Shown here: piece by piece, positions 3,888-5,888 of the stretch
Position numbering within the stretch: the stretch's first letter is position 1
How the letters are laid out: every line of letters begins with the position of its first letter
Assembly: GCA_024277285.1 (NCBI GenBank)
Contig: JAJRVM010000281.1
Location: 1 to 6,429, forward strand
Source of the DNA: Planctomycetota bacterium
GTDB taxonomy: Bacteria > Planctomycetota > Planctomycetia > Pirellulales > Pirellulaceae
Direction of reading: 5' to 3'
DNA: 6,429 nucleotides
Program-made: the position numbers and the translations under genes
The notes under the pieces: model-generated
What the model was told of the DNA's origin: nothing
The model's input: the letters and a program-made list of their open reading frames with translations, nothing else
Database searches by the model: none

Positions 3888-5888
3888 ATGAAACTACTGA
3901 AAGTGGCAGCGGGAGTTCTGAATCAGACCCCCTTGGACTGGCAGGCGAACAAGGCACACATTGTTGCCGCGATCGAAGAGGCTCGGCAGCAAGGTGTAAG
4001 CATTCTCTGTCTGCCGTAGCTTTGCATCACCGGCTATGGGTGTGAAGACGCGTTTCACGCTCCCGGCGTTCCACGCACGGCACGCGACGTATTGCTCGAG
4101 CTGGTGCCGGCAACCAGAGACATCATCGTTTCGGTGGGGTTGCCGCTCCTTTATGGCGGTGGCCTGTTCAACGTCGCCTGCCTCATTGCCAACGAGCAGA
4201 TTCTCGGTTTCGTCGCGAAACAGAACCTTGCCGGTGAGGGAATTCACTACGAGCCGCGTTGGTTCAAGCCTTGGCCGTCGGAAACGCGCGTCGATTTCGA
4301 GCTGGAAGGCGCAACCTACTCGCTGGGTGACCTTGTGTTTGCATGTGATGATGTGCTGATCGGGTTCGAGATCTGCGAGGATGCTTGGGTTGCGGATCGG
4401 CCGGGCGGCGAGCTGGCGGCGCGTGGCGTCGACATTATCATGAATCCGAGTGCCAGCCACTTTGCTTTCGGCAAACATGCGGTGCGTCAGCGTTTTGTAC
4501 TGGAAGGATCGCGCGCGTTTAATGTCAGCTATATCTACGCGAATCTTTTGGGCAACGAAGCGGGACGGGCGATCTATGACGGTGATGCGATGATCGCCTG
4601 TGACGGCCAGTTGCTGGCGTCCGGTCCTCGTTTTTCCTATGCGGACCATCACGTTACGTCGGCGATCATCGACGTCAATCAATCGCGCATGCGGCGCGCG
4701 CGACGCGGCAGTTTCCAACCCGATTTGGAACAGCGATCGTTGCATTGTATCGTCGCAAATTTCACTTTTCCGCCAACGGAGCTGGAAAAACGAGATATTA
4801 CCGTTCCCGCTTGGGAGCAAAGTGGTCATCTCAAAGAAGAGGAATTTGCTCGTGCCGTAGCGCTCGGACTGTTCGATTATTTGCGCAAGAGCCGATCACA
4901 CGGGTTCGTCGTGTCGTTGAGTGGCGGTGCGGATTCCGCTGCGGTGGCATGCCTTGCGGCGTTGTTGGTTCGTTTCGCACTTGCTGATATCGGGCTGGAC
5001 GCACTGCGCCGTAAGCTCGACTATATCGTTGCTGTTCAGGAGGCTGGCCAGCCCGAGGCGCTCATTCACGGCTTGCTTACCTGCGTCTATCAGGCAACGC
5101 GAAACAGTTCGGATCTCACGCGCGATGCTGCACGTGACGTTGCGGACGCGCTAGGAGCCGAGTTTTTGGAGTTCGACGTCGACGAACTGGTTACGCAATA
5201 TACCGATATTGTCTCGACGGCTATTGGCCGCACGCTGACGTGGCAACACGACGACGTGGCGTTGCAGAACATTCAGGCACGCGTCCGGTCCCCCGGCGTC
5301 TGGATGTTGGCAAATCTCAATCGTGCTCTGCTGTTGTCCACCAGCAACCGTTCGGAGGCGGCCGTTGGCTATGCGACGATGGATGGCGACACGTCGGGTG
5401 GACTGTCCCCAATCGCCGGAATCGACAAGGCCTTCCTGCGTCACTGGCTGCGGTGGCTGGAACTGCAAGGGCCGGCCGAATTGGACTCGATCGCCGCATT
5501 GCGCGCCGTTAACAAGCAGCAACCGACGGCGGAACTGCGCCCCCAGGCAGCTGGCCAAACCGACGAGGAAGACCTGATGCCGTACGAGATTCTGGATACG
5601 ATCGAGCGCGCTGCGATTCGGGACAAATTGATGCCGATCGGGGCGTTTCAACGTTTGGTCGTCCTTTACGGCGACCGTTTCGAGCGGCGGGAGTTGGGAG
5701 TGTGGGTCGAGCGATTCTTCAGGCTGTGGGCGCGTAACCAGTGGAAACGCGAACGCTATGCACCTTCGTTTCACCTGGATGACGAAAACCTCGATCCAAA
5801 AACATGGTGCCGCTTCCCGATCCTCTCGGGCGGCTTCGTGCGTGAGTTGGAACAACTGCGCGACTACTTGGTAGAGAACGCAGGATAG
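3888..5888 (+). CDS. nadE: Glutamine-dependent NAD+ synthetase, interrupted by an in-frame amber codon at the catalytic Glu
   Basis: NadE makes NAD+ from nicotinic acid adenine dinucleotide, ATP and glutamine, the last step of NAD synthesis, in the cytoplasm. Codons 1-43 (MKLLKVAAGVLNQTPLDW...) start a nitrilase-type glutaminase domain of about 280 residues. Its triad should be Glu-Lys-Cys. The Lys is K111 (GFVAKQ) and the Cys is C163 (FEICEDAW), but codon 44, where the Glu of CLPELCITGYGCED is expected, is TAG (4017-4019). After a linker, the synthetase domain (about 300-660) has the ATP loop SGGADS at 345-350 and the family block with NRSEAAVGYATMDGDTSGG. The frame has 666 codons, normal for a two-domain NadE, with no frameshift. 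The start is ATG with GAGGG four bases upstream; the stop is TAG. As read, translation would give a 43-residue stub. A restart (TTG 4092, GTG 4104 or ATG 4440, none with a clear Shine-Dalgarno) could give an ammonia-only synthetase. It may be a pseudogene, a sequencing error or a recoded gene. Family assignment is certain. Confidence 0.9.
4017..4019 (+). other. In-frame TAG replacing the catalytic glutamate codon of nadE
   Basis: The reading is ...ATT CTC TGT CTG CCG TAG CTT TGC ATC ACC GGC..., or ILCLP-stop-LCITGYG. Glutamine-dependent NAD+ synthetases have Glu here; it is the general base of the glutaminase triad (E52 in the Mycobacterium tuberculosis enzyme). One G-to-T change from GAG gives TAG. 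Flanking residues keep the family pattern, so the gene shows no visible decay. Confidence 0.85.

What the first reader, a model, noticed from the sequence alone, without database searches (positions are those of the whole stretch)
4017..4019. Amber codon exactly at the catalytic glutamate of the NadE glutaminase domain
Seen: nadE is open from a Shine-Dalgarno-preceded ATG at 3888 to 5888 except for one TAG, codon 44, in CLP-stop-LCITGYGCED. Known: that position is the Glu of the Glu-Lys-Cys triad of nitrilase-type glutaminases. The Lys, the Cys and the SGGADS ATP loop remain, and there is no other stop or frameshift. A nonsense change at any other codon would be ordinary; one at the triad residue, in an otherwise undamaged essential gene, deserves a check. 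Inference: candidates are a G-to-T sequencing or assembly error, a fresh null mutation, a reinitiated ammonia-dependent synthetase, or local UAG read-through inserting Gln or another residue.
Basis: partly seen in the sequence, partly recalled or inferred. Interest (0 to 1): 0.78.

Follow-up and report, generated by a model that had tools for sequence, protein, structure and literature searches.

The report
Lone stop in an ordinary nadE
A single stop codon sits at a catalytic position of an otherwise well preserved NAD-making gene from an uncultured planctomycete-like bacterium; it is most likely a one-letter sequence error or a private mutation, not a new way of reading the gene.

Summary
The frame 3888-5888 encodes a two-domain, glutamine-dependent NAD synthetase with one in-frame TAG (4017-4019, codon 44), at the Glu of the nitrilase-type Glu-Lys-Cys triad. 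Everything around it looks like a working gene. Of the 119 other proteins listed (best 120 of 7999 scored), all have Glu there, and the window keeps the consensus residue at all 249 other near-invariant positions. Of 80 genome loci, 79 cover the codon and all 79 have Glu. Of 297 class-level genomes, 89 match strongly, 87 alignments span the codon, and none has a stop there. The stop does not recur in these sets, and the gene shows no decay. TAG looks like an ordinary terminator: nadE and its upstream neighbour end in TAG where homologues end. That argues against recoding; no tRNA lies in the window, but the genome is not held. The window's nadE stands alone in its 90% cluster, so no independent reading of the base was found. 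Best reading: a sequencing or assembly error in an intact gene; next, a very recent null allele. Read-through is not excluded but has no positive support.

The parts
3888..5888 (+). nadE, two-domain glutamine-dependent NAD(+) synthetase frame, interrupted once; terminal stop TAG at 5886-5888, followed by TGA
4017..4019 (+). in-frame TAG, codon 44, at the catalytic Glu of the nitrilase-type glutaminase
3888..4016 (+). codons 1-43, conserved start of the glutaminase domain; 38 of 43 residues identical to P0002, no window-lineage change counted
4218..4220 (+). triad Lys111 codon, intact
4374..4376 (+). triad Cys163 codon, intact
4092..4106 (+). first in-frame start-like codons after the stop (TTG 4092, GTG 4104); the database protein P0001 begins at GTG 4104
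2616..3116 (+). neighbour with a short RF-1 (GGQ) domain, ending in TAG at a homology-supported end
5888..6427 (+). NrtR-like Nudix regulator, running off the contig end; start at GTG 5888 or a little later (ATG 5903)

Best explanation
This is an ordinary glutamine-dependent NAD synthetase gene of an uncultured planctomycete-like bacterium. The TAG at codon 44 most likely comes from a single-base error in reads or assembly of a small contig. In the real cell the codon would encode the triad Glu, and the enzyme would make ammonia from glutamine in the N-terminal domain and pass it to the C-terminal synthetase. Shown: the stop, the gene family by homology, the absence of other damage in the frame and the Glu in every relative examined. 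Inferred: that the base is an error and that the gene works.
For: The window matches the consensus at 249 of 249 other near-invariant positions, and none of 34 window-lineage substitutions falls on one. Glu is present in 119 of the 119 other proteins listed, the best of 7999 scored, and in 79 of the 79 loci that cover the codon, out of 80 fetched. No stop at this codon appears in the 87 class-level matches that span it. The RF-1 neighbour aligns over its whole length to a relative, and the NrtR neighbour from residue 10 to the contig end. The allele occurs once: P0001 has 1 member and 1 contig, of 6429 bases; the nearest other protein is 86% identical and full length. Genomes with a close relative of this gene usually show one close copy: 6 of 6, and 89 of 89 at E 1e-150 or better (at most 4 candidates scored per genome). 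A fixed null would then be harmful.
Against: No reads, coverage or second assembly could be inspected, so an error is not shown. A very young real mutation would look the same. In 208 of 297 class-level genomes no match reached 1e-150, and many order-level genomes match only weakly; such genomes presumably use a more distant NadE, and the window's organism could hold one too. The rest of the contig shows no evident sign of poor sequence quality.
Confidence: 0.62

Rival explanations
1. A real but very recent nonsense mutation: a private null allele in one strain or a doomed cell lineage, perhaps tolerated because another NadE or salvage of NAD precursors covers the loss.
For: No other stop and no change at 249 near-invariant positions fits loss too young to leave decay; a rough Poisson bound puts the share of window-lineage changes made without constraint below about 0.24. 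G109 and G333 have two full-length copies, and distant NadE types seem common in the group.
Against: NAD synthetase is normally essential (established knowledge; the start of the PMC6946656 abstract, says so for M. tuberculosis). Close copies are usually single. No second example of a stop at this codon was found in the sets searched.
Confidence: 0.27
2. Reinitiation after the stop (TTG 4092 or GTG 4104) makes an N-truncated protein that acts as an ammonia-dependent NAD synthetase; the stop switches off glutamine use.
For: The synthetase domain is intact, and single-domain ammonia-dependent NAD synthetases exist (PMC3376133, passages seen). The database gene model P0001 begins at GTG 4104.
Against: The truncation would remove about 70 residues of a conserved domain and leave the rest. 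The glutaminase residues after the stop show no relaxation at near-invariant positions. By eye, no convincing ribosome site precedes either start. None of the 119 other listed proteins is truncated; all are 657-685 aa.
Confidence: 0.06
3. Local UAG read-through: the ribosome inserts an amino acid at codon 44. Glu would give full enzyme; Gln or another residue would be expected to give a form without glutaminase activity.
For: The frame stays open and conserved on both sides, as read-through would need.
Against: No relative examined has a stop here. The RNA round the stop is only slightly more stable than shuffles (z -1.43, 18 of 200 as good). No Rfam match at gathering scores and no tRNA in the window. 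Only an inserted Glu would be expected to preserve the chemistry.
Confidence: 0.04
4. TAG is a sense codon throughout this organism.
For: One in-frame TAG in a conserved gene.
Against: nadE itself ends in TAG where homologues end, though a TGA follows at once, which weakens this test. The RF-1-domain neighbour ends in TAG at the same point as relatives. TAG ends nadE in 40 of 120 related loci, some genomes counted twice.
Confidence: 0.01

Closest known systems
Glutamine-dependent (two-domain) NAD(+) synthetase NadE; solved relatives 3ilv, 6ofb, 3dla
   Same: CN_hydrolase plus NAD_synthase domains, triad Lys and Cys, second Glu and ATP loop; alignment to 3ilv in two stretches (residues 4-261 and 314-657)
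   Different: A stop codon replaces the triad Glu codon in the sequence as given
Single-base nonsense errors in metagenome contigs, or private null alleles (recalled)
   Same: One lone stop, no other decay, seen on one contig only
   Different: The position happens to be a catalytic residue
UAG recoding or read-through (amber suppression, pyrrolysine; recalled)
   Same: An in-frame UAG with conserved coding sequence after it
   Different: No recurrence in the relatives examined; TAG works as terminator at the end of the same gene and of its upstream neighbour

Membership tests
Two-domain glutamine-dependent NAD synthetase | CN_hydrolase and NAD_synthase domains in one frame | tested here: met
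   (PF00795 and PF02540 in the part after the stop)
Two-domain glutamine-dependent NAD synthetase | Glu-Lys-Cys triad of the nitrilase-type glutaminase | tested here: not met
   Lys111 and Cys163 present, Glu codon replaced by TAG in the sequence given. So I call it a nadE gene by descent, not a shown active member; the feature would be met if the base is an error
Two-domain glutamine-dependent NAD synthetase | ATP-binding SGGxDS loop of the synthetase | tested here: met
   SGGADS at residues 345-350
Programmed UAG read-through or recoding | Stop kept at the same codon in relatives | tested here: not met
   0 of 79 loci, 0 of 119 proteins, 0 of 87 spanning class-level matches
Programmed UAG read-through or recoding | For genome-wide recoding: TAG not used as terminator | tested here: not met
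   nadE and the RF-1-domain neighbour end in TAG at homology-supported ends. Does not test local read-through
Programmed UAG read-through or recoding | Suppressor tRNA or pyl genes | not testable with these tools
   no tRNA in the window; no genome held for the window
Pseudogene | Further disabling changes or loss of conserved residues | tested here: not met
   no other stop; 249 of 249 other near-invariant positions kept. A very young null allele would also show none

The most novel reading that the evidence does not exclude
A single population uses a stop at the glutaminase Glu codon to make a mixture of full-length enzyme by UAG read-through and no or truncated product, so that NAD synthesis switches between glutamine and ammonia use.
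Probability: 0.02. Interest if true: 0.65.

Novelty: not a real feature. Interest (0 to 1): 0.1.

Why it matters
If real, a stop at a catalytic residue of a normally essential enzyme would mean either a backup route to NAD or residue-specific read-through, and both could be tested. As the evidence stands, it mainly shows that a striking position alone is weak evidence: about one in seventy single-base nonsense paths in this gene falls on a triad codon (count).

Tried and rejected
Global TAG reassignment was rejected because TAG ends nadE and the RF-1-domain neighbour. Recurrent or programmed recoding was rejected because no stop lies at this codon in the relatives examined. Eight genomes had a stop flagged inside the match: G002, G043, G105 and G345 (G105 again) and G517, G532, G547 and G058. 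All eight stops are at the C-terminal end (G002 as L081; the other seven as L114, L113, L112, L125, L126, L127 and L128). RNA structure round the stop was unremarkable. No phage record matched the window in megablast mode. Looking for the same species gave nothing: the genus of G070 and the genus of G174 hold one genome each, the family of G070 ten. These groups were chosen by best match, and the window's own group is unknown. The closest gene DNA found is 68% identical in protein; dN/dS was not attempted. The 86% relative P0002 is known to me as protein only. Three paper searches (one search showed 10 of 93) listed no title or abstract start that reports a stop at this residue; this is no proof that none is in print. 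PMC6946656 and PMC3376133 were seen as passages and abstract starts, all other papers as listings and abstract starts. An earlier count gave 247 near-invariant positions with P0001 included and the stop among them; the report uses, without P0001.

Full report
What is there. The frame 3888-5888 translates without interruption except for TAG at 4017-4019, codon 44. The part after the stop matches CN_hydrolase (PF00795) and NAD_synthase (PF02540) above Pfam's cut-offs. It also matches NCBI NAD synthetase models, above the cut-off for the domain model TIGR00552 and below it for the full-length ones. The frame, read with Gln at the stop, aligns with solved glutamine-dependent NAD synthetases, best with 3ilv (E 1e-189), where the stop column holds Glu. 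PMC6946656 (passages) names that Glu, with a Lys and a Cys, as the catalytic residues of the glutaminase domain. The Lys (111), the Cys (163), a second Glu (122), the adjacent Glu (164) and the ATP loop are present.

Where it comes from. The protein search returned the window's own protein P0001 on a contig of 6429 bases, the window's length, with one member and one contig. P0001 begins at GTG 4104, after the stop. The best genome loci and the source-given names among the closest proteins are mostly planctomycete, with Verrucomicrobia and others further down. No whole genome is held for the window. The window's RF-1-domain neighbour has relatives near nadE in 6 rows, two of them the same gene (L088 and L116). 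The Nudix neighbour has relatives in 12 rows, two being the same place (L087 and L115) and two partial. So the contig does not look chimeric in this part.

Is the position special in relatives? Eighty genome loci were fetched, the best of 579 confirmed. Seventy-nine cover codon 44 and all have Glu, 42 with GAA and 37 with GAG; in L030 the contig ends before the codon. The 119 other proteins listed (best 120 of 7999 scored, P0001 set aside because it begins after codon 44) all have Glu and are 657-685 residues long. Predicted proteins with a stop there would be shorter and could rank lower, so this set leans towards intact genes. In 396 genomes of one order, 364 have a match. The 150 listed rows (148 genomes) all show open frames of 658 or more residues, too long for a stop at codon 44; that column agrees with the first-stop positions of five genes checked directly (G105, G345, G517, G532, G547). 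In 297 class-level genomes searched with the whole frame, 89 match at E 1e-150 or better. Of these, 87 alignments span codon 44; G024 and G030 begin at residues 140 and 143. The five flagged stops (G105, G532, G547, G517, G058) are genuine ends, with Glu at 44 in each. share genomes.

Is the gene decaying? At 249 positions other than 44 where at least 97% of the 119 proteins agree, the window has the consensus residue at all 249. Of the differences from P0002, 34 can be placed on the window side and 22 on the P0002 side, by majority of P0003-P0018. None of the 34 falls on such a position or in codons 1-43. Five of the 34 give a residue unseen in the others, against 2 of the 22. A rough bound puts the unconstrained share of the window-side changes below about 0.24. 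So the stop is either young or not real.

Is TAG a stop here? nadE ends in TAG directly followed by TGA, at the place where homologues end: 77 of 119 have no residue beyond, and the furthest has 20. The following TGA weakens this as a test. The RF-1-domain neighbour ends in TAG where L088 and L103 also have TAG and L021 has TAA; L035 has TAG two codons later, and the L022 alignment stops earlier. The first stop after the match start of nadE is TGA in 56, TAG in 40 and TAA in 24 of 120 loci, some genomes being counted twice. TAG is a normal terminator in this group.

Copies. One search found one match in each of 6 genomes; one match at 1e-150 in each of 89. In one search, G109 and G333 list two full-length copies. 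In one search, 208 of 297 genomes have no match at that threshold, and many match only weakly, so more distant NadE types seem common. First looks scored at most 3 or 4 candidates per genome in those two calls. A backup NadE in the window's organism therefore cannot be excluded.

Chance. There are 213 single-base routes to a stop over 182 codons other than 44. One route each for the three triad codons gives about 3 in 214. That is low for one gene but expected somewhere in a scan of many genes, and it was noticed after the fact.

Verdict. The same facts fit a sequence error and a fresh null allele. The first is preferred because the gene is normally essential, close copies are usually single, and the allele was seen once; this is a judgement, not a measurement. 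Reinitiation and read-through have no positive evidence. The organism's tRNAs, reads and second NadE copies could not be checked, so they are not excluded.

Noticed in passing
2616-3116 (+): A 166-residue protein with a short RF-1 (GGQ) domain and a C-terminal part with a weak Fis-like helix-turn-helix match (E 0.035) lies upstream of nadE; relatives lie near nadE in L021, L022, L035, L088 and L103. Possibly a ribosome-rescue factor of ArfB or PrfH type.
   Followed up: partly
1095-2210 (-): A 371-residue protein with an apparent membrane anchor (by eye) and a weak von Willebrand A domain, below Pfam's cut-off.
   Followed up: no
449-937 (+): A 162-codon frame that looks coding by eye, ends in TAG, and has no Pfam match (141 residues from 512 scanned), no plasmid match and no relative in the loci held then.
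   Followed up: partly
5888-6427 (+): The NrtR-like Nudix regulator frame may start at GTG 5888, overlapping the last base of the nadE stop, or at ATG 5903; translational coupling with nadE is possible.
   Followed up: no
G109 and G333: Two full-length NadE copies of this type in one genome.
   Followed up: no
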